Origin: Opeltia flavorubescens
Lineage: Eukaryota > Ascomycota > Lecanoromycetes > Teloschistales > Teloschistaceae
Direction of reading: 5' to 3'
NCBI GenBank assembly: GCA_000442125.1
Contig: KE546977.1
Location: 620,001 to 684,000, forward strand
DNA: 64,000 nucleotides
Shown here: positions 18,368 to 52,907 of the stretch, one piece after another
Position numbering within the stretch: position 1 is the stretch's first letter
Layout of the letters: each line of letters starts with the position of its first letter
Notes under the pieces: generated by a model
Told to the model about the DNA's origin: nothing
Database searches by the model: none
Seen by the model: the letters and a program-made list of their open reading frames with translations, nothing else
Program-made: the position numbers and the translations under genes

Positions 18368-18565
18368 TGCGGCTATACCGTATAGACAGAAGGTTAATAG
18401 GGCAGGTAGGGCTAAATAGCTACTATAGCTCGAAGGAGGCCTTTTAAATATATTTACCCAGTTAGATTTAGCGCCTTTTAGCACCTATATTTATTTAATT
18501 ATAGATTTTATAGGTAAATAATTTCTAACCTTTAATATAATACTATTATCCTATACCTACTATAT
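18368..18565 (+). repeat. 5' LTR of Gypsy element C
   Basis: A 198-bp sequence starting TGCGGCTATACC and ending CCTACTATAT is repeated at the same length and orientation at 52,705-52,902. Counted by eye the two copies differ at about 24 positions, all C/T or G/A transitions, with no indels. Homology stops abruptly at both edges. The two copies enclose a plus-strand Gypsy gag-pol, so they are its LTRs. The minus-strand open frame of 63 codons here is a chance shadow. Confidence 0.85.
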
Positions 18566-21220
18566 AATAAATAGTAGTAATTAAAGGTAACCCGTATAAA
18601 ATATAGTACTATTAACTTCCGTATATATATATTATTAAATATTATATAGTACTAGATTCTTTAAATAAACTTAATACTCTTTTATTTATTAAATTACCGC
18701 TTTTATACTAATACTCGGTTAATAAAATTAACTAAAATATACTCTAACTTTTAATCCTTCTAGTAAAGTTCTAAATATTTTTTATAATAATTCAGAGAAT
18801 TTAATTAACTTTATTATTATACTAGCTCTTATTATAGCTATTTTTTATATTAAAAAGTTTTAAAAGTATATTAAATAGTTTTTAAAATAGGATCGAGCTT
18901 TTATAATAATCTTTAAAGCCTATATTAACTATATTTATAAAAAAAGTCCAGACTTATACCGTTATTTAATATAGAAATCTTCTAATAGTTAAATAATTTA
19001 AACTAGTATAATAAAAGCTAGTATAGTTTTTATTACTACTTACCCTATAAATTAGAACGAATATCTACAAATTTTTGTTAAAATAATAAACGATTTCTAT
19101 AATAACGCTACTATAGTCCTCGAAAACGAAAACTTTTAAATTTATACTTAAAAGCTAGCTACGAATTTTATCTAGAATAGTTTAAGTTTTTATCTTTATC
19201 TTTTAGTTTTATTAAAAGATTTATAATAATTTAATAAATTTATAAATATTACTGAATTTATTAATATATTTAAATAGCAAAACTATATTTTTAGTATTAA
19301 ATCTAGCTTATTTTATTTAGTAAAATTAGAAAAAAGCGCTATACCGCTATTAAATATAGTAGGAATTCTACTATAATAATAGCAGGATAGATTTATAAAT
19401 AATAGTAATTTATTATAATAATAGTAAACTCTTTTAAATAAATAACTATTTATAAATACCTATCTAGTTTAACTACTAGAATTTTTTATATAAAATTTCT
19501 AGAATTAAATAATTATTATACCGGTAAATCTAATAATTATACTAGCGATTACTAAATTATAATAAAAGGCTTATAATATTAGATTATTTTAATATAATAG
19601 CGATAAACCGCTTATAAAGTTTATAAAGTTATATAATATCTATTATATTATATACGCTTTTATATAGCGTATAAAAATTAAATATAAAATAATAAATATA
19701 TCGTTAATATATTATAACCTGGATTTTTATTTATAAAATAAAATAGTTATAAAATTTACTACTATAATTAGTAAACCTAATTATAAGTTATTATAATTAG
19801 GCGTTAGTATTAAACTATAATATATATTTTTTAAAAACTATTTTAGCGAGCTATCGTCTATTATATTAATATAGCTAAAATAAATATATTATATTATTAA
19901 CGATATATAGGTTTAAAATAACCTTTTAGAATATTTTAATAATATTATTATTAAAGTAAAAAATAAAAAGATAATACTTACTAAAAGTATTCAAGTAATA
20001 ATTAATATTAAATATCTTAACGCTCGGCTATAAATATTAATTCCGGATAAAACTATAATAATTATTATTAAAGCTTTTAATAAGTTCCTTTAAAATAAAA
20101 AGAATAATTAATTTAATATTTATAATAATAATAAAAACTATAAAGCGCTAAAACGAAACTTTTTATAGAAAGATAAAAGTAAATAATATAAAGGAGTAGT
20201 AGTATACTAGCCGTTATAAAATAACCTTTTTTATACGTCTAAATATTTATTTATATATCTAAACTATATATAAAAAAACTAATTAAATATATTTTCTATT
20301 ATATATTAATACTAGAACCTTTTTATAGCTTTATAAGCTCTATTAATTAAAAGCGAGCCGGGTATATAAAATAATTAGTATATTATTTAAGACGCTCGTT
20401 AATAGTTTCCGTTTAAAACTATTACTCCGCTATAATAAAATTAAGCTAGAAACTAGTAAAGTTACAGCTATTAATAGCGTAATAATAGCCGGAATCTATA
20501 TAAAAGCTATTAGCTGAATAACTAATAAGTTTACTTTTAATAGAAAGCTTCTAGCGAGTAGATTCTAGATAATAGAATAAAATATTATTAAAATTACGAG
20601 AATAGCTTCTACTAATTAATAGACTTTACTAGAGCCGAATATATAGTAGATAAGAAGCCTAATAAAGCTCTATATATTACCGCTAAAAATTCTAACTAGT
20701 ATCGTAATATAATAGAATTCTATTTTATTATAATAAAGCGTATAAAACCTAAATTTAAATTAATAAAAATATACTAATATAATAAATATAATAAGATTTT
20801 TAAATTAAATAACGCTTTATATTATTATCTACGCGCTAGCTATAATAAAAAACTACTTTTAACTATAGCTACTACGGTTAAACCAACTATTAAGCTAAAC
20901 GTTCTAGTAATACTAGAGTAAACTTATTTAAAACTAGTTAAACTATTTAAAAATATACCGGAGGTTATTAAATTAGAGATTATTAAACTAGAGGTTATTA
21001 AATAACTACCGCTATAAATACTCTAATTAATTCGTTTAACCGTATAAAATATATTACTTTATCTTTTAAAAATACCGTTATATAACCGTAAATATTCGTT
21101 TATAATTTAATCTAAAGAATTATAGCTTTTATTAGAATATAGGCTATATAATAAGCTTAATTAACCGAAAATTTCTACTAGAATAACTACCGTAGGCTAT
21201 AATTTAGAAGATACTAGCTT
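18566..21220 (+). pseudogene. element C leader and gag region relic
   Basis: This interval lies between the 5' LTR and the protease of element C. It holds degraded plus-strand coding-like sequence without a motif I can name with confidence. The position, the length of about 2.6 kb and the absence of any other recognisable element make it the leader and gag. I saw no convincing primer-binding site: the bases after the LTR are too altered. Confidence 0.5.
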
Positions 21221-21229
21221 TTATAACTA

Positions 21230-22852
21230 TTAAAAGTATTAGTAAAAGGCGATATAATATTATTAAATTTATTATTATCGAAATTTTCGTATCTAATAAA
21301 AGGGTTATAGAGTTTACTATTATTATATATAAACTTTATCTAGTAAACGATTTAAACGCTAATATATTCATTAATATCGATATTATAAAGCTTAAAAATA
21401 TCGATATATATCTATTTATAAATATTATAACTATTAGCTTCTATAATAATATAGTAGTACTAATCGCTACTAGTATTAAAAATATTAGAATAAATATTAT
21501 TATTTATAGTATTTAATATATTATAGTACTATTATACGCTAATAGAGCTATTAAAATTACTAGCCTATACTAAAGCCTTTTAAACCTTCTATATAACCGT
21601 AACTTTATTTATAAAATAAAAATTTTAAATACCCTCGCTAATTATATATATATTATAGATTATATATTTAAATAGGTCTATATTTAGAATAAAATATTAT
21701 TTTTTATTTAATTAGTTATAAAAACTTAACTAGGCACCGTTTAAGAATATAAAACTAATAAATACTATTAAATTATTTGGCAAACCTATAAATTAGCTAT
21801 TAAAATATTAAAATAAAAATTTAAATAGTTTTTAAAAAACTTTAAACGCTATATAGCAGCCGCTATAGTAGCTGCTATAGCCTTAAATATCGCTATTATA
21901 CTATTTATTAATTCTAATTATTTAACGGAAATAGTATATTTTATAAATATAATAATCTTTAGAATATAAATTAAATAAACTATTTTAATTATTTTAATTA
22001 AACGTTACTTATATTTATAGTAAAATACTAGTAATATAATTAATATACTAGAATTAAAGTATATAAATATTTTATTAATAAAAAACTAAAAGTAAATTTA
22101 TAAGTTTGAATAAATTTATATATACTTTATTAATACCTATAATAAAAAGGTTATTAATAAAACTTTTAATAAATTTTATAAATAAAATTAGAGAAAATAG
22201 ATTATTATAGCTACTTTATTTTCGTTTTTTTATTTTATAATATAAAAAAATACTAATTAGAGCTTTAAAGGCTATATTATTATTAATATTTAAGTATTTA
22301 ATAAAATTATAATATTAAATACCTATTTAATTTTACTATAAACGGAAATTCTAGCGTAAATTTATAGCGCTAAAGTCTTTTTTATAGTTAATTTCGCAAG
22401 CTTTTTCTATTAATAATAGATTAATTAATAGTATTACTATTATCTAATAATAGTCTTCTATTAAAGGTAAAAAATATTTAAAATACTAGTAATAAACTAC
22501 TATAATTTACTAGTCTATATATAATAAATAATAGATAGGACTTTATATTTATTTTACTCTTTTTATAAAGTTTATATTAATAATATTATAATTTTTTCTT
22601 TTTTAATAAAAGAATATACGGAGTATTTTAACTAGATTTTTAGTATATTCGATATTATAAATCTATTTTTATTATTTATAAAATCGTTTATTAACTATAT
22701 ATCTATATATCTATTAAACTAGAAAGTTAATATTTTCGGGTTTATTATAATAAAAAATAAGCTAAAAGTAATTTTAAAACTTTTATTTCTATATACGCTC
22801 TAATAACTAGAAAAATATTTAAATTTAATAGGTTATCTTCGGTAGTATATTA
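21230..22852 (+). pseudogene. element C protease and RT relic
   Basis: The plus strand shows a VNDLNANIFI-like protease-region box near 21,340 and an RLGTVQEYEA-like segment near 21,735. An alanine-rich patch lies near 21,850 and a DIRGLNKI-like RT motif near 22,290. A YxDDI-type box followed by IFS is near 22,570, and the thumb region ends near 22,850 with a GYLR-like remnant. The last is the point where the hAT-like element sits. The region is a fossil with many breaks. Confidence 0.75.
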
Positions 22853-22860
22853 GTAATTAT
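22853..22860. repeat. 8-bp target-site duplication of hAT-like element 1 (left)
   Basis: gtaattat directly abuts the left terminus and is repeated exactly at 36,992-36,999 next to the right terminus. Eight bases is the hallmark length for hAT transposons. Confidence 0.75.
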
Positions 22861-23055
22861 TAGATTAGTTAGTCGGCCGGGTTTTCTAAATAAAATCTGG
22901 ATCTGGAACCGACTTAAGTCGGGTTAAAGATTTATAGAACCTAATTTAAATTAGGTCGAATTCTAATCGGGTCGGGTTCTTAGCGGGTTAAATTCTAGTC
23001 GGGTCAGGTTTTTAGCGAATCGGTTTTAAATTAGGTTAAACCCGATTAACTTATT
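22861..23055 (+). repeat. left terminal/subterminal arm of hAT-like element 1
   Basis: This is the terminal inverted repeat followed by repeated GGGTTR/RGGTCGRR motifs (about 195 bp). Surviving CGGG and GTCGGG blocks contrast with the adjacent A/T. Subterminal clusters of short motifs are known transposase-binding sites in hAT elements; that role here is inferred. Confidence 0.65.
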
Positions 23056-26000
23056 AAAAGCTCGCTTAAATTTAATAATATAATTTATAATATAAGTCCT
23101 ATAGTACTAGTTTTCTTTACTATAGTTAAAATCGTATTAATAACTGTAATTATTACCCTTATATTACCCTATTATATTATCCTATTATATTACTACTATA
23201 TTAAGATAGAATTATATTTAATAATAGTACTATTAATTTATTATTATAGGATTAACTAGGTCCTTTTTATAAAAGGAATAATACGAATAAATCTAATAAA
23301 AAATTAATATTAAATTCGCTAATTAATAATATTTATTTAAATTAATTTATAAGTTAACTTTTAAATCGAGATACTAATATATTTACTACGCTAATATATT
23401 TATTTTAAAAGAAACGAGAGTAAATTTAAATAAAAATAGAAGAAATTTAATTCTAGTACCTAATTTTAATTTTTTAGACTAAGGGCGAATATATTTAATA
23501 GAGTAATAATACTTATAAAACCTTTAAAGTTTAGTAATTAACTATTTTTATAGTAGTTTAAATCGAGGATACTTTTAATAAGTTAGTATATCCCTTATAG
23601 ATATAAAAGAGAGATAATTTAAATAAAAATCATTTAAAATTCTAGTTCGAATTTAAATAAACTACTTCGGTTTTTAATAATAAATTTATAATTATTTATA
23701 AAAATTACTTTAAAAGTTTTAATTATTTTATTATCTTTAATTTATCGACTATTTTAACTATAAATAAGTATTTAATCTCTACTTCTTATTAAAAATATAA
23801 ATAACCGTATTTTTAATTAAATATTAAAGCGAGTCTTAAATATATAAATATACTAAATAATATTTAAAAATAATATATTATTAATATATTATTTTAAAAG
23901 AAAAGTTATATAAATAATAATAAGGATTTCGATTAAAAGACTTAGAACCGCTAATTATATAAAACCTTTATATAACTCGACCTCCCTTTATAAATTATCG
24001 ATAATTCTATTTTTTAAAATTTTTTTTAAATATTTTATCCTAATATACGGTTCGCTAGTTAAATAACCTTAATTAATTAAATTAAAAAGGATTATATTAA
24101 TATTTATAAAAAAATCCGTAATAAGCTATATAATATAAATCGAATTTCTTTTATAATAAATACTTAGTCCAGCCTTTAAAGGATTTTATATCTAAAAATA
24201 CTAGTATATTAAATTAATAACTAATATTAGTTTTAAAAATAATTATTTAGATTTATATTATTAAATATTAATTATTCTAGTAAAATATAATATAATAAAG
24301 TATTAACCCTTTTTAATTATTATAATATTAGGCGAAAACTTTTTAATATTATTACTAATAATATAAATTTTAATAATACTTTAAAAATAGAATTAAAAAG
24401 TAAACTCTCCCGATTTAATTAAAAATAAAAAAAAACTAAAAACTTTTTACTATATTTAGTTTATATTATTAATTTTATAGTTTAAAATTTTATTATAATA
24501 ATCGAATCTTAAATAATAAATAATATTTTAAACTAGGATTTAAAAGATAAATATTTTAGTAATTTTAGTATAAGGTTATTAAATATAGTTAAAAAGATAA
24601 TATAATAAAATAATATATTAAAAAAAATTAAATTATTAATAATAATTTAGGTTCGCGCGCTTACCGTCTATATAAATATATTTTTTTAGTATAAGTTACG
24701 TTTTAAAAAATTTTAATTAAAAGAGAATTTAAATTATAAACCGAAGGGTTTATTTTAAAATATTTATATCTAATAGAATTTAATATATTTAATAATCCGT
24801 TAAATATATTAACTATATAAAATTTTTACTACCTATATTAATAAATAAAAAGGTTCGGATAATAAATTTAATAAAATCTATTTTAATATCGATAATTAGT
24901 AATTCTTTTTATTTTTTAATACTATATTTTATCTTTTTTATAATTTTACGTTTATTATTTTATAAACTATTAATATAAATATTTATTTAATATTCCGTGT
25001 TTTTATTAAAATATATAACTATTTTAAAATAGTTAAAGAAGCTTTTAAAATATTATATTATTCTATAAAAGCTATTATAATAAAAGCCTATTAAATAGCG
25101 ATCTAAAAATTTAAAAAGTATTATTTATATATAAAAAAAAAAGCGGATTAATATATAATCTAGTAAATATTTTAGATTCGATAATAAAATTAAATTTATA
25201 TTATAATTAAAATATTAAAAAAATATTTAAATCCGGCTAATAAAATTTTATAGATTATTATTAAAAAAAATTTTTAAAGTATTTTAATAAAAATTATAAT
25301 AACTTTTTTAATACTTTAATATAAAATAATTAACCTATAAAGATTTAATAAATAATATATATAAGTAATATATTTATACTTTACTAATTCTATATAACTA
25401 CTTATACTAGCTTTAACTAGTATTCTTTAACTACTTATATATATCTAAAAGAATTATATAAAAATAGAGCGATATTTTAATATAAACGTTACCGAGTATA
25501 TATTAAATTAGTAATTTTAAAAAGATAATACTTCTAATTTTTCTAGATTAGCTTAGATAACTTAAAATATTTTTTTTTATTTAATATCTTTTATTAGAAT
25601 CGAGCGGGTATTTAATTTTATAAAAAAAATCTATTAATAGAACCGAGTTTAATTAAATCTATTATATATAAAATAGATTATAATAATTAAATATAATAAT
25701 CGTACTATAGATCTAAAATTAAAAAAAGCGATTAATAAATTATAGAATTTATTTTATTAATTAAAAAAAATAGATAAATTATATAAAAATCCTTTTTATA
25801 ATATTAAACTAGGAGATATTATTATTAAAATACGCTAGTTAATAGGCTATAATAATTAATTTTTTTATATTTTTTTAAAAGATTTTATAAAGAAGTAATA
25901 TAATATTATTCTTAAAACTTTAAAATATAGATTTTATATTTCCTTTTTTTTTATTCTATTCCTTTTTCCTTAATTAAAATAACTATTTAATCCGTCTTAC

Positions 26001-27100
26001 TAAATATAAAATAAACGCTATATCCTTTTATTATATCGTAACCCGTTTAATATAGATAATTACTAGATTAATAACTATTTATTTTTAGTTTTATATTATT
26101 AGTAATATATATAAATAATATACTTATATTTAAATACTAATACTATATAAACTTCGGTACTTTTTTAGAGCGCTAGTAAAGTCGAGGTTTAAATTTTAGT
26201 TACTATTTTTTCTTTAAAAGATTATATTTTTAGTATAAACTTCCGGATAAAATAATTAAATAGTATTTTAAGTATTAAATTCTTTATAGATTTCTAGTAT
26301 CGATAAATTTTTTTTAAAATTATATATCCTAGTTTAATTCGGCGTTTTATTTAATAAAATATTAGTACTTTGTACTTTAATATATTATTTTTTTATATTA
26401 TTTTTTCTATACTTAATAGTTTAAAATCTTTAGAAAAAAAATTTAAAAATTAGATTACTAAAGCGTTATTAGTATATTAAATTTATAGGGTATTTAAGTC
26501 TTATATATTACCTTTTATAATAGATATTATTATTAGTTATTATAAATAATAGTTATAGAAGTAACTAAATTAAAAAGAAGTAATAAATTATAAATTTTAT
26601 ATACGGTTTTATAGGTGGTCTAAACTATTTTAAAATTTAGTTTTAATAGTATCGATTTAAGTTTTATTAATAATTTATTTAATATATATAGCCTTTTATA
26701 ATACTACTATTCTATTATTTTTTTATTTTAAAAAATATAGGTTTAGAGTTTAAAGGTTTATATATAACTTTATAATTAATACGCTCCCGCTCGCGGGATA
26801 ATTAATAGTATAATAACTATATAAACCTTTATATATAAATTATAACTAATTACTAGACCGAGTTTTATATTATTATTAATTTTAAAATTATAAATCGATA
26901 GGAGAACTTTATAAAACCGTATTTATTAAAAAAGTTAGCTTAATTTTAAATTAAAAAGAATAGGATTATTTAAAGAATATATAATAATATATTTAAATAA
27001 TATAATTATTTACTATATTAAATAGATTTTTAATATTTATCTATAAAAGTTTATTATAGTAAAAAGCAGCTATAGAAAACTATAATATAGACGCTGCCTT
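23056..27100. other. degraded interior of hAT-like element 1, left part
   Basis: About 4 kb without a recognisable gene. Several stretches (for example 24.1-24.6 and 25.0-25.3 kb) have the uneven codon-like texture of former coding sequence, but I see no diagnostic motif on either strand. A small G+C-rich palindromic patch, GCTCCCGCTCGCGGGATAA, lies near 26,782. Confidence 0.4.
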
Positions 27101-27169
27101 TATATTATAATTAGTAGTAGTATAAACTATTAATTTTTTTTAAATATTATTTATTAATCCTTTTATTAA

Positions 27170-27570
27170 TCGCGCGAGAAAAGTAATTAAAACTCTAGAT
27201 AATTTTATTAAATAAGTATTAAAATCTTTTTATTATTAGCAGATAGATTAAATAAATAATATAAAATCGCTAGATTAGATAACTCTAATTTTTTATAAAC
27301 TTAGATAACTAGGATTATAACTTTAATTATAAAACGTATTATATATTACGCGAATATTTATAAAACCGTTTTAAAAGATATAAAGTTAGATTTTATTTAA
27401 TAAAAGGATAAAATAAATATATTAAATATTTTAAATAAATTAAGCTAGATTAAACTCCTAATTCGTTTATTTATTAACGACTATTTAGATATTAAAAAGC
27501 GAGATAATATTAGCGGCCGAGTCCTAATAGTTTATATATTATACTATTCCGCTGAAGCTAATATACCCGA
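27170..27570 (+). pseudogene. unassigned coding-like relic within hAT-like element 1
   Basis: One plus-strand frame reads protein-like over about 130 codons with relatively few stops for this window. It is rich in Lys, Asp and Leu and ends in a clear segment SGRVLIVYILYYSAEANIPE at about 27,512-27,571. I do not recognise the family. It could be part of the element's own transposase or of cargo. Retention of an alternating hydrophobic/charged pattern suggests real former coding sequence rather than chance. Confidence 0.35.
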
Positions 27571-27867
27571 AATATAAGTATAAAAATAATATAATAAAAA
27601 CTTTAGTAATTATATTCTTTTAGCTAGTATATTTAATATATATTATTATAATATATTATTTAAAAAGAATATAAAAGTTATAAATATACTATTAATATAT
27701 ATTATTTAACTACTTAAAACTATAATTTTAATAAAAACTAATCTATTTTTTTTATATACTATAATTCTAGTATTAAACTTCTTTTAAATAATTTCGACTA
27801 AAATTAAAATATTTTAAAAAATTATACCTTATTTTCGCTGTCGGATTTTAAGAATAAATACGCTAGA

Positions 27868-27946
27868 CTTCTATTAAAATTCGAACCTAGAACCTTTAAA
27901 ATATAATAGAAATACCCGAAAATTATAACTACTAAATTATAGGAGA
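27868..27946 (-). tRNA. tRNA-like relic (pseudo-tRNA or tRNA-derived element)
   Basis: The minus strand has a tRNA layout of about 77-79 nt. A 5' TCTCCTA stem strand comes first, then an A-box-like TTTAGTAGTTATA, then a B-box GGTTCGAAT in a T-arm context, and a 3' strand TAGAAG. The last pairs with the 5' strand apart from one C/A pair, as G-to-A mutation would give. The anticodon stem is too altered to read an anticodon. It could be a mutated tRNA gene carried in the transposon or the head of a tRNA-derived SINE. Confidence 0.4.
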
Positions 27947-28859
27947 TATTAATAAAATTTACTAAATTAATATAATATAATAGTTTTTTATATAAAAATA
28001 AAACTTAAATTTTATAATTTATAAATTATATATTATATTATTTATACTAATTATAATAATAATTAATAGAATTTATTTAAAATATTTAATAATAAAACTA
28101 TTCGTTAAATATCTAGGAACTAATCGCGTATTTAACGTACTTTTAGCTCTAACTACTAGAGTAAACGCTTTAATACTAAGAACTTTTAACTCTATAAAGC
28201 TAGCCGGATTAATATTTTATAAATAGACCCGTTTTATTAACTAAACTAATTATTTTAATTAAATTTTTACTATTATATAAAAGGTTTTATTTAATCTCTT
28301 TTATTATAATAGCCTCTTTTATAAAACTAAAACTATATTCTATTAACCTAAAAACTATAACTAGTAGAAAACAAGGATTAAAATAGAATAAAAATAAAAC
28401 TAAGCTTTATATATAATAAAAAACCAACCGTATAATAATATCTAAGAGGTTTAAGAAATTAAAAAAAATAGATAAATAAAAGTAATCTATAGATAAAAAA
28501 GTACTAAAAATATCAGTTCGAATAGAAATAGAAGACAAAAGAATAGCGAATAGTAAATATAATAATATATCCGGATAATATAACTACTAGTTTTATTAAT
28601 TATTACCTAGCGTTAGTATTTAAATAGAAGTTAAAAGCTAAAATATTAGTAGAAAAAAATAAAAAAGTAGATATTATTATAATTACTCCTAAAAAAACCT
28701 TTAAAAAGGTAATATATATAAAAAATATAATATATAATAATTATTTTTTTTAAATTTAATATTTATCTAGTTTATATTTAAACGATTAAATTTACCTAAA
28801 ATTTTAAAATATATAACCCCTATTATTAATATTATCGCCTAACGGATTATCTATTATAC

Positions 28860-29225
28860 TAGTACCGCGGAATTTTAAAAAATAAGCTTAAAAAACTTTA
28901 TAAATAAATTAAAAATATTTAAAAATATAGTTAAAAATTTTATAAATATTATTAATAAAAAGATTAAATCGCTTTATTATAAATAAAATCTAAAAAGATT
29001 ATTAAAAAAAGTTAATAAAAAAATAAATAAAATTCTAAAAATTTATATAGAAAAAGACGATATAATATTTATTAAAAAAGATAATTCCTATAAAAAAAAT
29101 AAGAATTAAAAGGAAACGGGTAGTAAAAAAATTAATAAAGAAGAGGAGATTAATAAAAAGAAGAAGACTAATAAAAAGAAGGATAGTAAAAAAAAAGAGA
29201 ATAGTATAGAAAAAAAATAGTTTTA
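28860..29225 (+). pseudogene. unassigned coding-like tract, charged tail, in hAT-like element 1
   Basis: The plus strand reads as a long, strongly charged protein segment: Lys/Asn/Ile-rich now, and probably originally rich in Glu and Asp, since G-to-A change turns GAA into AAA and GAT into AAT. It ends in a purine-only stretch (about 29,095-29,215) like an acidic tail. A CxxCxxxGHxxxxC-like spacing follows at about 29,223-29,262, but no zinc knuckle can be confirmed. The family is unknown. Confidence 0.3.
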
Positions 29226-29262
29226 TAGATATAATAGATATAAATAATATATTACCTTTATA

Positions 29263-36991: not shown

Positions 36992-36999
36992 GTAATTAT

Positions 37000-39180: not shown

Positions 39181-39404
39181 TACAATAGTAGTATTCTATT
39201 ATACGATTAGTTACGAAAGTAATAGTATATTATTAATTTTAAACTTAGTATAGTTATAAGTTATAATTTTAAAAACAGTAGTAGTGTTATATTATAGCTA
39301 TAGATACCTTATAGTAGCTATACAGAAATATAGATATAGTTATAGTTATAGTTATAAATACTATAGTATAAGTATATATAATACGTAATATTTTACTTAA
39401 GGTA

Positions 39405-41000: not shown

Positions 41001-42224
41001 TATTTTAATTTATTCTAATTTCTTACTATCTTATATATATAGGCTCTTCTACTACTATTAATAGCCTACTACCGAGTTTTTAAAACCTTTCTTATTAAGA
41101 TCGGTATTTTAATTAAAATATACCGCCTTATTTTTTAATTTATTAAAAGCGCCCTTTAACTTATTAAACTTTATATATAAACGATTATTCTATAGTATAA
41201 TAATATTAAATAGCGTTATATCGCGTTATAGTTTATTTATTATCCTATAAATAAGATACAACTTAAAAATAATCTATATTTTACGTTTATTAGTGTATAT
41301 ATTATTATAAGTCTTTTAGGCGCTTACAGTTATAGATCTTCTTCTTTATATTAATTAAATAGAGCTTAATAGATAATAAGCTCTTATTATAATCTATAGA
41401 ATTTTATCCGTTGTATCCTATAATATTTATTTTACGATTTATACTACGATATCTATATAAACGCGGATAAATTTTTTTTTTATTTTAATAAACTAAGCTA
41501 TAAATCCTTAAAAAGCTTAATTAAATAATTCGATTTTTTCTATATTCTTTTTTAAATATTTTTTCGCGATAAAACCGTTCTTTTAAAAATAAGTTATTAG
41601 AAGATCTAGACCTATATATATAACTAATAGAGGTTTTTTATAAACTCGATAGAGTTTAGAATTAATAAGTTTTTTAATTTTAGAAACCTCGATTTTTATA
41701 ACTATATTTAATTTATCTTTTAATTCGGGCTTAACTTTAATTAAAGGTATAATTAAAATAGGAAAATTAGCTTTAAAATATTAAACTAGGAATTTTATAT
41801 ATTAAATATAAATTGTAAGTAAAGTTTAAAATAATACTTACCTAGATATTTTAACGCGTATAGATCTATTAAAGTATACTAAAGTATATTAAATTAAATA
41901 TTCGAATATTTAAATTTAGAAAATAAATTATTTAATATAAGTTTAAAAGTAATTATTAAAAATAATATAGTAATTTAAACTTTAAGGGATTAAATTAAAA
42001 CAATTCTAAAATATAGTATATAAATTAATTTAAAATTAGAAACGATAATTATATTTATATAGATAAAAGTAATATATAATTATAAAGAGGGGTATTAAAA
42101 AAAGAGGAATATTAAAAAGAAAAGAGGTATTAAAAAAAAAAGTAAAATTAGATAAATAAAGGAATTCTATTAAATTTTAATATTAGTATTACTATAATTA
42201 AAGGTCCTTTATATATATTTATAC

Positions 42225-42625
42225 GCTTTTCTTTCTATTTTATTTCCTAGCTTATAAAAGTATTAGATACTACGTTAATATACCTTCTATTTTATTTCCT
42301 AGCTCGTAAAGGCACTAGATACTATATCGATATATTTCCTATTCTATTTTCTAGCTTCTAGGGGTATTAAATATCACGCTAATATATCTTCTATTCTATT
42401 TTCTAGTTTATAAAAGTATTAAATACTACGCTAATAAGTATCCTATTTTATTTCCTAGCTTAACTAATAGCTGCCTATAATACTAACGAGCCTCCTATTT
42501 TATTTCCTAGTATAAAGCACCGCTAGTAATTATACTAATATATATCCTGTCTTATTTTCTAGTTTAAATAATAACTACCTACTATACTAATAGGCCTCCT
42601 ATTTTATTTCCTAATATAGATAGAA
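42225..42625. repeat. about 55-60-bp minisatellite array 3 in the CACTA-like element
   Basis: About six to seven units starting CTATTTTATTTCCTAGC, then a diverged tail (AAAAGTATTAGATACTACGC in the first four, AACTACCTACTATACTAATA in later ones). Confidence 0.8.
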
Positions 42626-43250
42626 AATACTTCTATTAGCGATAATAGCTATAATAGATTTCTTAATATAGCTATTAGCGATACTATATACGATAATAGC
42701 GCTATATAAATTCCTAATCTAGTATATAAACGCTACTATTAATAATAGTTACTAAATCCTATTTTCTAGTATAAATTATCTACTAGATAGGCTTCGATAA
42801 AAAATAATAGATATTTTCTAATATAGTATACTAACTCTACTAATAGCGATAAATATTAAAAGGTATTTCCTAGTATAAAAAACCTACCAGCGATATAAAT
42901 AAACGCTAGATTATATTTTCTAATATAAAAGTTTTATAGGCTTTAAATAATAAATATTAGATCGGAATTCCTAATATAAAAGGCCTACTAATAATATAAA
43001 TATACGTTAAATTATATTTCCTAAAATAAAAAGTTTTTTAACCTCGAGCGATAAGTATTAAAAGGAAATTCCTAGTATAAAAGGCTTATAAACTTTATAA
43101 AATATATACTAGATTATAATTCCTAATATAAGAGACCTACTAGCGATATAAATATATAATATATCGTATTTCCTAATATAAGAGGGTTTTTAGCCTTTTA
43201 GAATATATATTAAAATATACTTCCTTATATAAAAAGCCTACTAGCAATAA
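42626..43250. repeat. array 4, diverged TTCCTAGTATA repeats in the CACTA-like element
   Basis: Continues from array 3 with units of about 55-60 bp, each carrying TTTCCTAGTATAAAA, then a short linker with GCCTACTAGCGATATAAATA or a variant. The order is irregular, and it looks older or more diverged than array 3. Confidence 0.75.
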
Positions 43251-44240
43251 AAAGTATTATAAGTAAAAAGAAATACTTTATTATAGTACAAGGACTTAAT
43301 AAATTTTCTTTATCTCTAACTTTATTTAGCGCCTTAGTACTATAATAGAATAAAAGATTTAATACGCTTTTCTAGCCTATTAATTATAGCGTTTTATTAT
43401 TAACTATAGTTTTTTTTTATTATTTTTTTATTATAAAAAACCGCTGATATTATACTACTATTAAAAGGTTATAATTTATAAAATTAGTCGTCCTATAAAA
43501 TATAAAGCTAGTCGGCTAGTAATTTATAGAATTAGTTAAAATAAAGTTTATAAACTTAAAAAAAAGTAATTTTAAAAACTACTTAATTATTACTTTATAA
43601 TATATCTTATAACCTTTTATAAAATTTAAGATCTAGTTATAAAATTAAAAGAATAAAAAATAAAAATATTAAAATCGAAAATAAAAATAATAAGATATAA
43701 TCGCTAGATTAAGCGACTTATAAAATAAAATTTTATAATTTTTAGTTTTTTAATTAACTTAATAACTAACGTCCTTTAATAATTAAAGCTAAAAATAATT
43801 AATACTATTTTTAAATTATTATATTTAATATATAATAAAATATTTAATTTAAACTTTTAATATATTTTAATTAAAGCGATATCTAGTTTAAACTTCTATT
43901 ATAGCTTTTTTAAAGTTATATCTAAATTAAACTTTTAATATACTTTTATTAAAATAATATTTAAATTAAACTCTTAGAATAGTATTAATAAAGAAATATC
44001 TAATTCCTTATATAAAATAATACTAAAAAGTATACTACTTTAAATAGGCTCTTTAAATTTAGTTCGTTATAATAAAGTATTAAAATTATTACTTATTATT
44101 TAAAAGGAATTACCTACTAGTTATACGCTTAAAAAGCGTAAGGCCTAAAGCTAGATTAGCTATACTATATTTTAGGAATATAGTTACTAATATATTCCTA
44201 GCCTAATCTTTTTATAACTACCCTAGCGGCTAAAAGAAGG
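43251..44240. other. degraded spacer in the CACTA-like element
   Basis: No recognisable coding sequence. Around 43,830-43,990 three related segments of about 55 bp share AAACTTTTAATATACTTTTATT-like text, probably another decayed repeat array. From about 44,250 the texture becomes coding-like. Confidence 0.4.
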
Positions 44241-44249
44241 AAAATAAAC

Positions 44250-47200
44250 TTATTAGAATTAAAGAGCGAATATATCCGCTATAATAATAGTAATTATAGT
44301 AATAGTAGTTATAATAATAGCAGTTACAGTAGTGGAACGATCCTAATATCTATATCTAAAAAAAATATATTGAAAGAATTAGAGAAGAGGATAAAACGTT
44401 ATTATTTAATATATTTATTTACTAAAATAATTAACGAATAGCTAGTATCGCTTTTATTTTTTAATATAAGCCGAAATTATAATATATATAAAAAAGTATT
44501 TAAAAAAGCGAGAGATTTTATTAAAACTTAAAAAGGTTAAATACTTAAATATATATAAGACTAGATTTCTAATTATTTAAAAAATAATAATAGTATATTT
44601 TTAATTAATCTCTAAAACTTTAAAAGTATTAAAAATACTTTTATATATAATTACCGATTTTATTAAATAAAATTACTCTTTTTTTTTATAAAGAATACGG
44701 TTAACTAGAATAGAATTATAAAAAATAAAAGGTTATTTTTTAAATATAAGATCTTTTCTAAAAGGTCCTAATATAATATTAATAGCGGTAAACGTATTTA
44801 TTATAATTACTACGCTTATATAGTATATAAATTTAAAAAAAATATATTCTATATTAATTTCGATTATTAAATTTAACCGAGCTTTTTATTTTAATATTAT
44901 TAAAGGCTTATTAATAAAAATTAAATTTAAAGATAAAATAATACTAAACGATTTCCCCCTATTAAAAAAGACTATTATATCGTTAAAATTTAAAAAAAAG
45001 ATTAATTTAGATAATAATTCTAACGTAAATATTAAAAGTAATATTTTTAACTATACTAAGCGGCCTTATAAGAAAGAAAAAAGGAGTTCGTTATTAATTA
45101 AATCTAATAAAAAAAAAGCTATAAAGGCCGTTAAAGCTATAAAAGCCTCTTTAATTATAATTAATAATAATTTACTCTAAATAAATTATATAATATTTAA
45201 TTTTACTAGTAAAGTATAAAGCAATAAAGTAGAAAATATAATATATATAAAGAGCTTTATAGTATCTAAGAATAATTATAATAAAGATAATAATAGTAAA
45301 AGAGATATTAAAAAAGATAATAATAATAAAAAAACTTCGTATACTAAATAAAAAAGTAATTATTTACTAAATAATATAGTTTAATAAAATAATTATTTAG
45401 TATAATTTATTTTTATATAGTATAAGCTAGGCTAGCGCTATATTTACTTATTTAATATTTTATAGCCTCGAGTAAATAAACGATATACTATAAATTAAAT
45501 ACTATATAATATTTTATATACCTAAAATAGCTTTTAATTAAAATATATTATATATTTTAAATTAATAATAGAAGCTCTAGTAGTAAAGCGTAATATATAT
45601 TAAAAATAATTTAGTCTAGTACTATATATATTCCTAAATATCTCGTTTAAACCTTTAAATTTTATTATAATTTCTTTATATCTATATATCTACTATCTAT
45701 TATTATAAAAGAATATTAAACTTATCTATTTAAACTTTTTATTATATTATATAAAATACTAGTTTATAAACCTCTAAATAATAGAATAGCTCTACGAAAT
45801 TTACCTATATATAGAATAATTCATTAAAATACTAGTACTATTATTAAAAGTAATAGTATATAATCCGATTAATAAGGTAATAATACTAGTAATAAATTAG
45901 ATATTACTAGTAATAGATTAAAGGTTACTAGTAATAAATTAGATATTATTAAAGATAGCTTCGGTTTTATAAATAATAAAATAAACGATATTGGTTATAA
46001 AGTAAACTAGGATATTTTAAAGGATATTATATATAATTAAAATAATAAATTATCGTTAAATATAGTATATTAATAGAGAAAAAAGCTATTATAAACTAAT
46101 TAAATATCCAAAAATAATAAAAATAAAGATAGGTTTAGATTAAAAGATAAATTAACTTAAGCTTAACTAATATTTATATTAATATACCTTATAGATTTTT
46201 TTAATAATTTAGAATTAGATATAAAAATAAAAAATAATAATTTAAAAAGATTATTTTATATAGCCTACTTATATTAATAGTCTTTTCCTATAAATAAATC
46301 TTTTTTCTATATACTAGAATCTATATTATATAATCTATTATTTCTAATATTTAGGCCTATAGCAACCCTATTTATATTATCGCTACCCTTATTAAATATA
46401 GAGATTATTCCTGGCTTAGCCCGTAGAAGGTTATTATTTATATTTTATTTTATAATCGACCTCTAGTATAAAAAAGAAAATATTTTAAAAAAGGAATATA
46501 TTAAGTTATAATAAATCTTCTCGCTACTTATAAATTACAAAAATAATAATAAAAAATTAAATTTATTTTAAAAACTAGATATTTTAAAAAAATAAATCTA
46601 GTAATATTTACTACTACTATAGCTAATATAAAAACCGATTCCGATTATTTTAAAAAAATAGTTTTCCTTTACTATAATAAATAAATTATTAAATATTATT
46701 CGAAAAACTAGCTAGCTATATTAATATAATCTAATAGACTTTATTAAATTTATCTTTTGTATATAAAAATTAAAGGATAAAATATATTTTAAAATAGTTT
46801 ATTATATTAATAAGCTAATAAAATTATAGTACTCGCGAGTATAAAGCTTATTTATTTATTTAATATTTAATAAAGTAGTAAAAACTATTAAAAAAAATTT
46901 ATTAATTTTAAATAATATTATCTAATTTAAACTATAAAAGAGATTATTATATAGTAGAATTATTTTTATTAATAGCGACTTTAGAAAGAATACGGACAAG
47001 CTAAAAAATATAATAATTATTTTAAAGGCTATTATAGTTTAAAATTAACTATTCCCCGAGATTATTTAAATTATCCCGGAAAAAGACTATAAGCTATTTT
47101 TTTATAAGGATATACTAGTTAAAATACCTTTATAGAAAATTATAAGATATATTAATATATATCTCGATTAAAATTACTAGAATAAAAATAAATAATCTAA

Positions 47201-48550
47201 GCTACTTAATAATAATTAGTTTTTTATCTAGAAAGTCTTTAATAATATATTTTTAAAGTTATTCCGCTCTTTAAATAAATATTTTTTAATTATAAAAAAG
47301 CTAGAAGTTTAGGAATATAAAAGGAAGTATTTAATATAAATAATTACTAGTAATATTATTAAGATAATATCGTTACCTTTTTTATTATTTATTAATAATT
47401 TCGGCGTATATCGAAATATATATAAAGCGATTAAAGCGTTTTATTAAATTTTAGTATTACTTCTTTATTTAGAGAGGCGAAAGATTATTAATATCTTTAT
47501 TTTTTACTTAAAATTATATAGGGCTATTATTAAAAATATTATAAAAGCTATATAAAAAGAATTTCGGGAATTAAATAAAGGGATAACTATAAAAATAAAT
47601 AATATAATTCGACTATATAATAAAAAATATTAATTTCCTTTAAATAATATTTAATTTATTATCTTTATTTATTTAATAATATTTATAAGGGATATACTTT
47701 AATAAGCGGAAAATATTAAAGTCCTTTATTATACTATACGCTTCGGTTATAAAAGCTATTATTATTTTTTAAAAATTAGAGAGGATTTAACGTATAATAT
47801 ATCTTAAAATAGGCGGTATTATTTTAAAACCGTACTTAAATAATTTCTAATTTTTAAACTAAAAAATAAATTAGTAAAAGAAAAGTATACTAAAAAAACT
47901 AGGATATAAAAATAACTACTAGCTATTTAATTAATTACTTTATACTTTAATATAATTATATTAAAAATATATAACGCGCCCTATTTAAAATAGAAAAAAT
48001 TAGGCCGAATCTTATAAGGTTTTTTATTCTTATTAATTTTAATTAAAAAAGGTATTAAATTATATCTAAAGTCTTTTTAAAATTTTTCTTTCCCGCTTAA
48101 ATAGTTAAGAATATAAAGTCTAGGTTATTATATTTAATTATAGTTACTATTAAAAGCTAGCCGAGTATTAATTCTAACGCTACTAATTTTATAATATTAT
48201 AATAAAGTAAGCTAGTATAAGATTAAATTCTTATAAATAGCTAAAAAATATTTTAATAATAATTAACTATATATATTAATAATTAACGCGATAGTAAATA
48301 TATATAGAATAATTATAAAAGAAAATACGATAATTTATATTTAATAATTTACTCGACTAGATTTAATATAATAATAAATTATTAAATTAAAAAAGGTTTA
48401 TTAGAAGTTTATAAAGTACGTGGATAAAATTTAAAAAAAAATTAAAAATATTTCTAATTAAATAGCTTCGACGTATAATATTTTAGATAAGGTAATTAAA
48501 GAAGATAATAAACTACTATTTTTACTATTTGAATTTATATTCTAATACCT
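44250..48550 (+). pseudogene. Tnp2-like (CACTA/EnSpm) transposase relic
   Basis: The plus strand holds a long decayed coding region. The clearest part is near 47,370-47,430, SLPFLLFINNFGVYRNIYKA, which corresponds to the LPF-hh-x-D-x-F-x-h-x-RN-x-Y core of Tnp2-family transposases. A Y-x-x-x-RFGYKSYYYF segment follows at about 47,735-47,770, matching the Cys-rich CR-x-CY part with Cys now Tyr. A run of REDLTYN comes next. An upstream Asn/Lys-rich stretch (45.25-45.35 kb) was probably acidic. Family knowledge: Tnp2 proteins mobilise CACTA elements by acting at their subterminal repeats. Many stops and frame changes from C-to-T/G-to-A mutation make it non-functional. Confidence 0.6.
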
Positions 48551-48659
48551 AGGTAGATTTAAGCTAATTCTTTTTAGGTTTAGATAATAACCAGATATTT
48601 AAAGATAAGTTCCCGCTTTACCTACTTACTACGAAAACGCGATTTATAGTAGCTAGGCT

Positions 48660-49110
48660 AACCTATAATAACTTCCTATTAACTTTAGATATTTATTCTA
48701 ATAACGAGGCGGATATTAATATAAATATCCTTTTTATCCGAATCGTTAGATATAATACTTTAAAATCTAGGCTAATATCTAGCGCTTCTATTATAGTCTT
48801 AAATATCTATTCTGATAATAAAGCGGATATTAATATAAAAGAGCTTTGGTTATAATATTATCGCCCGGTATATAAACTAATTTTTTAAACTTTAATATAG
48901 TATCTAATAATTAGCTTAATAACTAGAAAGTTTTTAATAAATAAATAACCTTTTATTATTAGTTATATAATATACTATATAACGTATAAGCTAATTTTTA
49001 AAACTTTAATATAGCGTCCGATAGCTAGCCCGACGATTAGATAACTTTAGATATAAAAAAAGCCCGCTTACGATACTTATAAGATATATTATATAATATT
49101 TAGGCTAATA
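48660..49110. repeat. about 115-125-bp duplicated units in the CACTA-like element
   Basis: Two neighbouring segments share TATTCTAATAACGAGGCGGA-like text (48,685 and about 48,810). Two others share GCTAATTTTTAAACTTTAAT followed by ATAGCGTCCGATAGCTAG-like text (about 48,877 and 48,990). The periods are about 125 and 115 bp. Confidence 0.6.
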
Positions 49111-49121
49111 TAATAACTTTT

Positions 49122-49590
49122 TTCCTAGTACTAGATAGTTATTAAAATAAGTAGGTAAGTTTTAATATAATTTCACCCCTATACCTTATAATTTAAGACA
49201 AGAGCTAGATCACTTAGGCTGACTTTTAACTTTTCCTTTTAGTACTAGACAGTTAGCTAAATAAGTAGGCACGTTTTAGTATAATTCCACCCCTATATTT
49301 TATAACTCAAAATAACAGCTAGATTATTTAGGTTGATTTTTAATCTTTCCTCCTAGTATTAAACGGTTAGCTAAATAAACGGGCAGGCTTAAGTACAATT
49401 TCGCCTAGTATTTTATAATATAAGATAATAGCTAGATTATTTAGGCTAACTTTTAATTTTTTCTTTTAATATTAAACGTATATCTAAATAAGTAGAGAGA
49501 TTTAAGTATAATTTTACCTTATACTTTATAGTACGAGATAAAAACTAGAATACCTAGGCTAACTTTCGATTACCTACTACTAGGCTTAGA
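49122..49590. repeat. about 114-bp minisatellite array 5 in the CACTA-like element
   Basis: Four units of about 114 bp starting at the TTTTCCTAGTACTAGACAG type sequence (about 49,120, 49,235, 49,350 and 49,463). Each contains AAATAAGTAGG, TATAATTYCACCCCTATA and AGCTAGATTATTTAGGCTGA. Transitions dominate between units. Confidence 0.85.
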
Positions 49591-51184
49591 TAAAAGGTAA
49601 AAAGGATAAAAGATTTTTAATACGTTACAATTTATATTTAAACCTATATAGATATATTATAATATATTTAGGCTAACTTATTATACCTTTTATTAAGTAT
49701 AGATAGTAAATAGGATAATAAAAGTAGATTTTTAATAAAACGAGAGTATTAAAATAAAATTTAAACTATCCAGGCTAATTTAATCTACTTTAGTTATATT
49801 TAAAATAATAGAAATAAAGGTAATTATATAAATAGGCCGCTTTTTAATATACGGTATAATATATAAGCTAATTATTTTTAGTAGAAGATAATCTAGGGGG
49901 TAAAATTCGATATTTACTATATTTACTTATAATTAATTTACTTTTAAATTTTATCGAATTAACTATAAAAACGCCTAATTAAAGTTATATAAAAAGGCGA
50001 TTTATTCTAAATACGATTTTAGATTTAATACTACCGGCTAAAAGTTAAATAAAAAGATAAAAATAAACAAAAATAAAGGGGCTAAATACTAAAGTTCTAA
50101 AAGTTACTAAGCCTATCTAACGTATATATAGGCTTATACCTTTATAAAATAGCCGTTTAATATACTACTATTATAAATTATAATATTCTTCTTAATAAAA
50201 GAATCCTATTTTTTTTTATTTATAAATTAAAGAATTAATATTATTTTAAATAAATTTAAATATAAAGATTTTAAGTAGTTAATAGACTATACCGCGCTAT
50301 AAAATTTAATAGGTTATTTTTTTATAAAAAACGTATTTAAATAGTTAATAAGGTTAGAATTTATAAAATCCTAAAAATATAGTAATCTAGATTTTATAAT
50401 AGTACTCGAATTCTTTAAATTATAATATCCTATTTTATTAAAATCCTTTCTTTTAATTTTAGAATATATAATTATTAATTATAATAAAAATAATTTTTAA
50501 CTTTAAAGCCCTAAATACGAATTTATTAATAATAATAGATATATAACTATTAATTTAATATTATAGAATTTTATTTTTAGTTATCGGAATTTCTATATAT
50601 TTAAACGACTAATAAATTTATTACGCCTTAGAATAAGAAATAAATTTATTTAAAATTTACGCTTAGTATATTAAAAAGATTATAGTTTAAAGTAGGTAAT
50701 AGATTTTAGTATAATATCGTTAAAATAATATAAACGTATTATCTATACTAATTTATAAGCCTATATATACTAGAATTTCGCGAGGTATTATATTTATAGT
50801 AAAAGAGTAATAAAAAAGTATTAAGTTTTTTAAATAGGAGACTACCTAAAAATTTAATATTATAATAGGTAGATATAACTTATATAATATTTTATATACG
50901 TTTTCTAATATTAAAAATATCTTTTTTTAATTAGTAATATAGTTATAGTTAAATTTATTAATAATAATAATAATATCCTACTCTATAATATAGTACTAGA
51001 TCTTTCTATATAAATAAGGATAGATAGATAATAAATTATAGGACTTTCTAGAATTATTAATAAATTAAGCTATATTATTTTAAATCCGCGTATAGAATTA
51101 TAATAAATAGATTTTAATAATAATCCGTTTAATAAAAAGTATATCCTATATTATAATTAAAGTATCGATTATTTATAAAATATA
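49591..51184. other. degraded spacer in the CACTA-like element, right side
   Basis: About 1.6 kb without a recognisable gene. Patches at 50.2-51.1 kb have coding-like texture on the plus strand, but no motif could be assigned. Confidence 0.35.
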
Positions 51185-51485
51185 TAAGCCGGATTTTTTA
51201 GTTCGGTATATAAGTGTAGTATAAATATAAAAGCTAGATTTCCTAGTTTAGTATATAAGTATAGTATAAATATAAAAATAGGACTTCCTAGTTTAACGAA
51301 TACCTATAGTATAGATATAAAAACCGGATTTCCTAGTTTAATATATAGATATAGTATAGATATAAAAATAGGACTTTCTAGCTTAATAAATACCTATAGT
51401 ATAGATATAAGAGCCGGATTTCCTAGTTTAGTAGATAGATATAGTATAAATATAAGAAGAGGATTTCCTAGTTTAATATAATAAA
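51185..51485. repeat. about 46-bp minisatellite array 6 in the CACTA-like element
   Basis: Six to seven units of about 46 bp: GGATTTCCTAGTTTAGTATA followed by AGTATAGTATAAATATAAAA. Two subtypes alternate (AGTATATAGATATAGTATA and AATACCTATAGTATAGATA), as in array 1. Confidence 0.85.
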
Positions 51486-52139
51486 GAATAGATATATAAA
51501 AATTAGAATTCCTTATTTAAAATACTAATAATATAAATAGGATTTAATAAAAGGTTTTTTATTTTCTAATTAATAGCCTCCTAACTAAAAGGTATTTATA
51601 TAAGTAAGTTTTACCGATATAAATATTCCGATTAGCTAATAATTTTAAAATACTATTAAAATAAGCTTTCTAGTATATTTCCTAGTATAGGAAAAAGGAG
51701 GGCGGAAACTCCTTTTTATTAGAATAATATATAAGGCTTAAAGATATTTTCGCGCTATTTTATAAGGGTTAAATAGTTATAAAAAAGGATAAAAAAGAAA
51801 TATAATACTACTAAATAGGCTTTCTATATAATTCCGTTACTAATTAGTCTACGGGATTAATTAAATTAAGGAGGATTAGGATTAACCCCTTTAATAAAAA
51901 TACAATAACTATAGCCTTTTTAATACTAGTATTTACTTAGGTATAAAGATTAAGAAATATATATTTAATATAAAAAAATAGCGTTATATTAATATATAAG
52001 TGGTTTTTTTATTTCCGATAGCTGCTACTTAATACTAATTTTATTACTATTATTATAACTACTTTTATAATTTATAACTATTTTCTACCTATATAACGCT
52101 ACTATTATAACTATAACTATATTAGTTATACTATAATAA

Positions 52140-52238
52140 TTTAAGTTGCGTAACTATTATATAACTGTTTTAATACCGTTGTATATCTATTATATAACTA
52201 CTATATAGCGGTTATACAGCGGTTGTACTGCGATAGTA
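52140..52238 (-). repeat. right terminus of the CACTA-like element
   Basis: Reads inward on the minus strand from TACTATCGCAGTACAACCG, with further GCTGTATAACCGC and GTAGTTATATAATAG units. It matches the left end over the first eleven bases, apart from two C/T changes and one A/C change. Beyond that the match is through short related motifs rather than a long inverted repeat. Confidence 0.55.
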
Positions 52239-52704
52239 AAAATATACGGAGTAGCTATTAGGTATTTATTATAAAAACTTATATTATAATATTAATAATA
52301 TATTTATAGTCTATTACTAACTTTAATAATAATCTCTATTAGTACTACTATATATCTATACCCCTAGTTATTATCGATAGTAATAAAAAATTTAAAATTA
52401 AATAAATCCTTTAAAAATATCGTATTTATAAAAATAGAGATTTTTTTATTTAATAGCTTATTTATTAGATTAGTTATAGATTTAAAAATAACTAATAAAT
52501 ATTTAAATACCGTTTAAATAATATTAAAGTACTAGTAAAAGAGTATAAACGCTATTTTAACTCGAAATCGGTCCTAGACTATAATAAAGCCGCTAATAAT
52601 ATTAATATTAATATTAAGTAGTAGAAGTAAGCTAAAAAGCCGCTTATTAATAAGGAAGAGCTTACTATTAAAAGCTAATAGCTTTATTCGTTACTAGTAT
52701 CTAT
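52239..52704 (+). pseudogene. element C post-integrase region with chromodomain relic
   Basis: Immediately after the CACTA-like element the plus strand resumes Gypsy sequence. A chromodomain pattern is visible near 52,430-52,570: hydrophobic-rich start, a WKGYG-type middle, then a N-h-K-h-L-V-K-E-Y-K-R-Y-F end. The 3' LTR follows at 52,705. Chromodomains on fungal Gypsy integrases are thought to guide insertion to heterochromatin, which fits this setting. The region is a fossil. Confidence 0.65.
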
Positions 52705-52902
52705 TATAGCTATACCGTATAAATAGAAAGCTAATAGGGTAAATAGGGCTAAATAGCTATTATAACTCGAAAGAGGCCTTTTAAATATATTTATCTAGTT
52801 AGATTTAGCACTTTTTAGCGCCTATATTTATTTAATTGTAGATTTTATAAATAAATAGTTTCTAACCTTTAATATAATACTATTACCTTATACCTACTAT
52901 AT
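52705..52902 (+). repeat. 3' LTR of Gypsy element C
   Basis: A 198-bp direct repeat of 18,368-18,565. It starts TATAGCTATACC where the 5' LTR has TGCGGCTATACC, and ends CCTACTATAT. All differences counted by eye are transitions. It is followed by aatat, the candidate target duplication. Confidence 0.85.
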
Positions 52903-52907
52903 AATAT

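What the first reader, a model, noticed from the sequence alone, without database searches (positions are those of the whole stretch)
18368..52902. A Gypsy element split by two giant DNA transposons of different superfamilies
Matching 198-bp LTRs lie 34 kb apart. Gag-PR-RT, RNase H-integrase-GPY and chromodomain relics appear in order in three islands, and each gap is one element with its own inverted ends. This resolves 35 kb of apparently featureless A/T into a dated nest: Gypsy first, then hAT-like and CACTA-like insertions.
Basis: partly seen in the sequence, partly recalled or inferred. Interest (0 to 1): 0.75.

Follow-up and report, generated by a model that had tools for sequence, protein, structure and literature searches.

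The report
Retrotransposon split by two large transposons
In a fungal-type genome, an old 7-kb retrotransposon was interrupted by two larger DNA transposons, and all three were then wrecked by a genome-defence mutation process; the nest is real and precisely mapped, but nests of this kind are ordinary in such genomes.

Summary
The nest is real. One Gypsy-type LTR element spans 18365-52906, with 205-bp LTRs and a 5-bp target duplication (TATAA). Six of six full-length copies fetched from elsewhere in the genome (about 7.2 kb, each with its own 5-bp duplication) are collinear with the three islands and lack both inserts. Insert 1 (22861-36991, 14,131 bp) belongs to a multi-copy family: the window plus 7 of 8 tested end pairs have short inverted ends and 8-bp duplications, and six short elements (379-465 bp) share those ends. 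The ends are hAT-like, but no transposase was detected, so the superfamily stays open. Insert 2 (about 39068-52262, 13.2 kb) has few relatives; one stretch was protein-coding and matches a recalled fungal CACTA/EnSpm motif above all nulls run. Its inverted ends could not be shown. Every part carries extreme RIP: the window's LTRs differ by 24 transitions and 0 transversions, so LTR divergence dates nothing. Only 'Gypsy before each insert' is established, not the order of the two inserts. Elsewhere the Gypsy and 14-kb families inserted into each other. An ordinary TE nest containing one interesting unclassified 14-kb family.

The parts
18360..18364 (+). 5-bp target duplication TATAA, left copy (right copy 52907-52911)
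   Evidence: six other full copies also have matching 5-bp flanks
18365..18569 (+). 5' LTR of the Gypsy-type element, 205 bp (TG...CA in less mutated copies)
18570..22860 (+). Gypsy internal island 1 (ends in the RT region)
   Evidence: collinearity; RVT_1 at the corresponding part of copy L010, E 0.0072, under cut-off; no Pfam match in the window piece itself
22853..22860 (+). 8-bp target duplication GTAATTAT of insert 1, left copy
22861..36991 (+). Insert 1: 14,131-bp TIR element of a multi-copy family; ends TAGATTAGTTAG / complement of TAGACTGGTTAA
36992..36999 (+). 8-bp target duplication GTAATTAT of insert 1, right copy
36992..39067 (+). Gypsy internal island 2 (RNase H onwards)
   Evidence: RT_RNaseH E 0.006 in the window; RT_RNaseH 1.9e-4 and SH3_Tf2-1 0.0014 in L010, all under cut-offs
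39065..39067 (+). Target duplication of insert 2, left copy TAC (right copy TAT, 52263-52265); 4- or 5-bp readings possible
39068..52262 (+). Insert 2: about 13.2-kb CACTA/EnSpm-like element, few relatives; boundaries uncertain by about 2 bp
39465..43245 (.). Tandem arrays (44-, 54-, 52- and about 51/101-bp units) in the left part of insert 2
47089..48440 (+). Transposase-like coding relic in insert 2 (CACTA motif match ends at about 47546)
52266..52701 (+). Gypsy internal island 3 (no domain detected)
52702..52906 (+). 3' LTR of the Gypsy-type element, 205 bp
52907..52911 (+). 5-bp target duplication TATAA, right copy

Best explanation
A 7.2-kb Ty3/Gypsy-type retrotransposon inserted here and duplicated 5 bp (TATAA). 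Later two cut-and-paste DNA transposons inserted into it at different points: a 14.1-kb element of a multi-copy family with short imperfect inverted ends that duplicates 8 bp, and a 13.2-kb CACTA/EnSpm-like element that duplicates about 3 bp. RIP (C-to-T mutation of repeated DNA) then stripped almost all CpA from every part, so the genes in the nest are broken by many stops. Shown: one Gypsy insertion, both inserts, their boundaries (insert 2 within about 2 bp), replicated or related copies elsewhere, transition-only LTR divergence. Inferred: which transposases moved the inserts, the superfamily of insert 1, and a filamentous ascomycete-type host.
For: Six of six full-length copies are collinear with the islands and read through both insertion points. 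Matching 5-bp duplications at the window element and at all six copies. Similar divergence of every island piece from each copy. Insert 1: inverted ends and 8-bp duplication in the window and in 7 of 8 tested pairs, 12.2-14.5 kb long; six short elements with the same ends. Insert 2: coding signal (transversions 51, 40, 108 at codon positions 1, 2, 3 against relative L078) and CACTA probe scores of 28.5 and 27.7 against Markov-null maxima of 22.7 and 18.7. RIP: 178 transitions and 2 transversions in 1,435 LTR sites over seven elements.
Against: One of 8 candidate pairs of insert 1 ends (C6) lacks a matching duplication. No transposase domain in insert 1. Insert 2 lacks demonstrable inverted ends and its target duplication needs C-to-T changes. 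The CACTA probe is recalled, was tried after I had seen the likeness by eye, and its second half (C2) was not above null in the window. The L078 alignment has gaps of 4 and 14 bases, not multiples of three. Gypsy domains score under Pfam cut-offs.
Confidence: 0.92

Rival explanations
1. Insert 1 is not a hAT but a large element of another superfamily that makes 8-bp duplications (for example the Kyakuja-Dileera-Zisupton group, recalled), or a giant non-autonomous element moved by a transposase encoded elsewhere.
For: No Pfam match in six frames; six recalled hAT motif probes at null level; PF05699 over the genome gave one sub-threshold match, E 0.132, not in a 14-kb copy.
Against: RIP also hid the RT of the Gypsy in the window, and the PF05699 search rang in none of its 14 control genomes, so absence of a hAT hit is weak. 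8-bp duplications and short inverted ends are usual for hAT (PMC12730594, passages).
Confidence: 0.45
2. Gap 2 is not a CACTA-type element but another large element without inverted ends, or a composite.
For: Inverted ends not shown; the 3-bp duplication depends on RIP changes and could be read as 4 or 5 bp; PF02992 found nothing, although its controls also rang nowhere; no Pfam match.
Against: Coding stretch with a CACTA-like motif in both the window and a diverged relative; two relatives run collinear over about 10 kb, which argues against a composite.
Confidence: 0.25
3. The two LTRs belong to two different Gypsy insertions or solo LTRs, and the islands are chance neighbours.
For: The LTR is repeated, with 41 listed matches (a capped list).
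Against: Identical 5-bp flanks, ordered islands with exact empty-site continuity in other copies, similar divergence of all pieces.
Confidence: 0.01

Closest known systems
Nested TE clusters in RIP-affected ascomycetes, e.g. Mycosphaerella graminicola (PMC4522978, passages seen)
   Same: LTR element as base with a 5-bp duplication, later insertions inside it, transition-type RIP damage; that paper reports 78 putative clusters, one of 47 kb
   Different: Here both inserts are single DNA transposons of 13-14 kb; the M. graminicola example shown held class I elements only
ToxhAT, a 14.3-kb hAT-associated TIR element (PMC6737239 and PMC9594970, passages seen)
   Same: Size class, TIR element in RIP-prone fungi, can be nested with other elements
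   Different: ToxhAT has 74-bp TIRs and no identifiable target duplications; insert 1 has short TIRs, 8-bp duplications, many copies and short derivatives. No gene content shared with ToxhAT was tested
Fungal CACTA/EnSpm elements (PMC12730594, passages seen)
   Same: Short (3-bp) target duplication and a CACTA-like transposase motif (recalled probe)
   Different: Termini do not read as CA...TG here, and inverted ends were not demonstrated
Ty3/Gypsy LTR retrotransposons
   Same: TG...CA LTRs, 5-bp duplication, RT then RNase H then a Tf2-type SH3 stretch
   Different: Nothing distinctive; all domain scores weak because of RIP

Membership tests
Ty3/Gypsy | LTRs with TG...CA ends and a 4-6 bp target duplication | tested here: met
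   Window plus six copies, 5-bp duplications in 7 of 7; TG...CA ends readable in less mutated copies such as L014
Ty3/Gypsy | RT and RNase H upstream of integrase | tested here: inconclusive
   In L010, RVT_1, then RT_RNaseH, then SH3_Tf2-1 in order, all under Pfam cut-offs; integrase core not detected
   Island 3: no Pfam match in three forward frames of the window or of L010
hAT (insert 1) | 8-bp target duplications | tested here: met
   Window and 7 of 8 tested pairs; six of six short elements
hAT (insert 1) | Short TIRs of the hAT terminal type | tested here: inconclusive
   12-bp imperfect TIR TAGACTGGTCAG-like; terminal consensus of hAT is recalled and the fit is imperfect
hAT (insert 1) | hAT transposase with C-terminal dimerisation domain | tested here: inconclusive
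   Not detected, but RIP hides even the Gypsy RT in the window
CACTA/EnSpm (insert 2) | 2-5 bp (usually 3-bp) target duplication | tested here: met
   TAC/TAT against the empty site, one C-to-T apart; 4- or 5-bp readings possible
CACTA/EnSpm (insert 2) | CA...TG (CACTA) inverted termini | tested here: inconclusive
   Ends do not read CACTA; 8 of 12 purine/pyrimidine matches between ends, near chance; RIP blurs the ends
CACTA/EnSpm (insert 2) | EnSpm-type transposase | tested here: inconclusive
   RIP-aware score with a recalled probe: 28.5 in the window and 27.7 in L078, above all nulls; no Pfam match; PF02992 search uninformative
RIP-mutated repeats | Transition-only divergence with loss of CpA | tested here: met
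   178 transitions to 2 transversions over 1,435 sites in 7 LTR pairs; insert 1 keeps 21 CpA among 1,190 C-initial dinucleotides

The most novel reading that the evidence does not exclude
The 14.1-kb family is a giant TIR transposon lineage outside the described superfamilies, precise in its 8-bp duplications and with its own 379-465-bp short elements, which together with this Gypsy family builds one large AT-rich block on most chromosomes, possibly the regional centromeres.
Probability: 0.15. Interest if true: 0.5.

Novelty: new member of a known kind. Interest (0 to 1): 0.28.

Why it matters
It turns 35 kb of near-featureless AT into a nearly base-exact insertion history, and shows that RIP rather than time made the LTR divergence, so ordinary LTR dating would mislead here. 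The 14-kb family, with clean duplications and short derivatives but no recognisable transposase, is the part worth classifying from an unmutated relative.

Tried and rejected
Chance pairing of LTRs: rejected by flanks and empty sites. Islands from different families: rejected, similar divergence in all pieces. LTR dating: rejected, 2 transversions in 1,435 sites. Order of the two inserts: no evidence either way; insert 2 keeps a few more CpA (52 against 21 in insert 1), but that may only reflect low copy number.

Led nowhere: Pfam on all six frames of insert 1 and on two whole forward frames plus seven chosen pieces of insert 2 and one piece of its relative L078; the remaining four frames of insert 2 were not searched whole. 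PDB search with a piece of insert 2. PF05699 and PF02992 over the genome, both with silent controls. Shared-stop analysis of the terminal 2 kb of insert 1, which RIP saturation makes uninformative: in the Gypsy control most window stops in every frame were shared by all copies. Codon periodicity in the terminal 2 kb: three right-end loci (L054, L057, L065) share only about the last 500-750 bp with the window; the L054 interior is a Gypsy copy. First paper query returned nothing.

Rows dropped: the clustering count used 40 of 41 LTR hits, 20 of 26 left-end hits and 24 of 42 right-end hits; short, partial or weak hits were left out, and those lists are themselves capped. L015 and L016 were fetched but not used as empty sites because they are rearranged or partial.
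Full report
SETTING. The window is G000:C13:620001-684000 of a 34.4-Mb assembly in 23 contigs. G+C per 2 kb is 7-22%, while a gene-bearing flank in the same genome is about 55% (L069). Dinucleotide ratios in the nest (TpA/ApT 1.29-1.48; (CpA+TpG)/(ApC+GpT) 0.05-0.10) against 0.54 and 1.36 in that flank are those of extreme repeat-induced point mutation (RIP).

THE GYPSY-TYPE ELEMENT. The two repeats align over 205 bp (18365-18569 and 52702-52906) with 24 transitions, no transversion and no gap (first alignment). Both are flanked by TATAA. The LTR has 41 listed matches in the genome, a capped list, several in pairs about 7.0 kb apart. Six such pairs were fetched. Each is a full copy with matching 5-bp flanks (TTTTA, CTAAT, ATTAA, TAATT, TAATA, ATTAT), and all six are collinear with window 18365-22860, 36990-39069 and about 52267-52906. 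At the first junction the six copies read straight through the point where the window is interrupted, and a seventh, partial copy, L017, does so too. At the second junction 6 of 6 read through. Divergence from the six copies is alike in all five pieces compared (transitions 13-19%, transversions 0.8-2.5%), so the islands are one element. In L010, the most G+C-rich of the six, pieces searched apart gave RVT_1 (E 0.0072), RT_RNaseH (1.9e-4) and SH3_Tf2-1 (0.0014), in Gypsy order. In the window only RNase H models scored (E 0.006 and 0.054). All are below Pfam's cut-offs. No gag, protease, integrase core or chromodomain was detected.

INSERT 1. Window 22861-36991 (14,131 bp) starts TAGATTAGTTAG, ends with the complement of TAGACTGGTTAA (12 of 12 identical in purine/pyrimidine code), and is flanked by GTAATTAT on both sides. 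Of 26 left-end hits, 20 cover most of the query, and of 42 right-end hits 25 cover 330 bp or more, the window included in both. Of 8 left-right pairs tested, 7 have matching 8-bp duplications (6 identical, 1 with a single transition) and 1, on C6, does not; the 7 are 12,183-14,450 bp long. The shortest, on C14, lacks about 1.9 kb of interior. Interior sequence is collinear in other copies, although only 5 of 830 candidates were scored. Six short elements (five of 465 bp, one of 379 bp) share the ends and have 8-bp duplications (4 identical, 2 with one transition), so these ends were evidently moved by some transposase in trans. Among 17 copies compared over the left 2 kb, differences from the window are mainly transitions (12-16%, against 0.1-5% transversions). 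No transposase was identified: nothing in Pfam in six frames, one sub-threshold PF05699 match elsewhere in the genome with silent controls, and six recalled hAT probes at null level. It works like a cut-and-paste TIR element with hAT-like ends; whether it is a hAT is open.

INSERT 2. The empty site and the family's right end as seen at C14 and C15 place insert 2 at about 39068-52262 with a 3-bp duplication TAC/TAT, one C-to-T apart; a 4- or 5-bp reading is possible. Its left end has one other match (C10, 78%) and its right end three weak ones (71-76%). In a search with the whole insert (148 listed matches, 38 of 382 candidates scored, many of them short matches to its tandem arrays), two diverged relatives, at C14:562-572 kb and C15:977-986 kb, run collinear over about 10 kb. 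A 1.3-kb piece of the C14 relative (L078) aligned to window 47089-48440 shows transversions of 51, 40 and 108 at codon positions 1, 2 and 3, with some gaps not divisible by three: this stretch was a gene under selection before it decayed. I recognised a fungal CACTA/EnSpm-like motif by eye from memory and then tested it with a codon score that allows for RIP. The first probe scored 28.5 in the window (100 Markov nulls, maximum 22.7; 60 shuffled probes, maximum 18.7) and 27.7 in L078 (maxima 18.7 and 17.8), at the same place (first run, 40 nulls, maximum 22.6). The longer probe scored 33.4 and 31.0 (null maxima 25.2 and 21.0). The second half alone was not above null in the window; in L078 it scored 16.8 at the expected place, for which no null was run. 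The probe is recalled, so this is support, not proof. Inverted ends were not shown. Tandem arrays lie at 39465-43245; repeats near the ends are common in CACTA elements (recalled).

ORDER AND AGE. Each insert came after the Gypsy. The inserts are at separate points, so their order is unknown. LTR pairs of seven Gypsy elements together show 178 transitions and 2 transversions in 1,435 sites, so LTR divergence measures RIP. Elsewhere Gypsy copies sit inside 14-kb elements (L013; L054) and a 14-kb element sits in a Gypsy copy (L065), so the two families were active over overlapping periods.

LOCATION. Of 84 chosen hits, 72 fall in the best 200-kb stretch of their contig (500 random placements: mean 38.8, maximum 46). 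This may mark regional centromeres or large AT-rich islands and was not tested further; several contigs have only one or two hits.

LITERATURE. Passages only were seen of each paper. Nests with an LTR base and a 5-bp duplication under RIP are described in Mycosphaerella graminicola, which also mentions nests in putative centromeric regions of other fungi (PMC4522978). AT-rich isochores and nested insertions are discussed for Pyrenophora teres (PMC5915480). ToxhAT is a 14.3-kb hAT-associated element with 74-bp TIRs and no identifiable duplications (PMC6737239; PMC9594970). Traits of fungal EnSpm and hAT elements are from PMC12730594. Six library searches listed no paper that I recognised as describing this 14-kb family; without the organism's name this is weak.

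VERDICT. It is a well-resolved example of a known kind of structure.

Noticed in passing
window 1-5489 and 7283-12774: Direct duplication about 7.28 kb apart, 86% identical over 5.5 kb, in the left flank of the nest; flanks of two Gypsy copies elsewhere (L009, L011) match both copies.
   Followed up: partly
window 53169-54369: Just downstream of the nest lies the right end of another member of the 14-kb family, inverted and even more heavily mutated; 53388-54369 matches 35855-36811 at 74.5%.
   Followed up: partly
L013, L054, L065: Mutual nesting: Gypsy copies inside 14-kb elements (L013, L054) and a 14-kb element inside a Gypsy copy (L065).
   Followed up: partly
L038, L040, L041, L071, L072, L073: Short elements (five of 465 bp, one of 379 bp) with the ends of the 14-kb family and 8-bp duplications, G+C 27-35%, less mutated than the large copies.
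   Followed up: yes
G000, contigs with hits: 72 of 84 chosen Gypsy and 14-kb-family hits fall in one 200-kb stretch per contig; candidate regional centromeres.
   Followed up: partly
window 39465-43245: Several tandem arrays with 44-, 54-, 52- and about 51/101-bp units inside insert 2.
   Followed up: no
window 50045-51381: A second stretch of insert 2 conserved in the C14 relative (69%); no family found in three reverse frames.
   Followed up: partly
L069 1996-3496: A nearly pure A+T (3-6% G+C) copy of the 14-kb family ends abruptly at a gene-rich stretch of about 55% G+C with an open frame of at least 387 aa.
   Followed up: no
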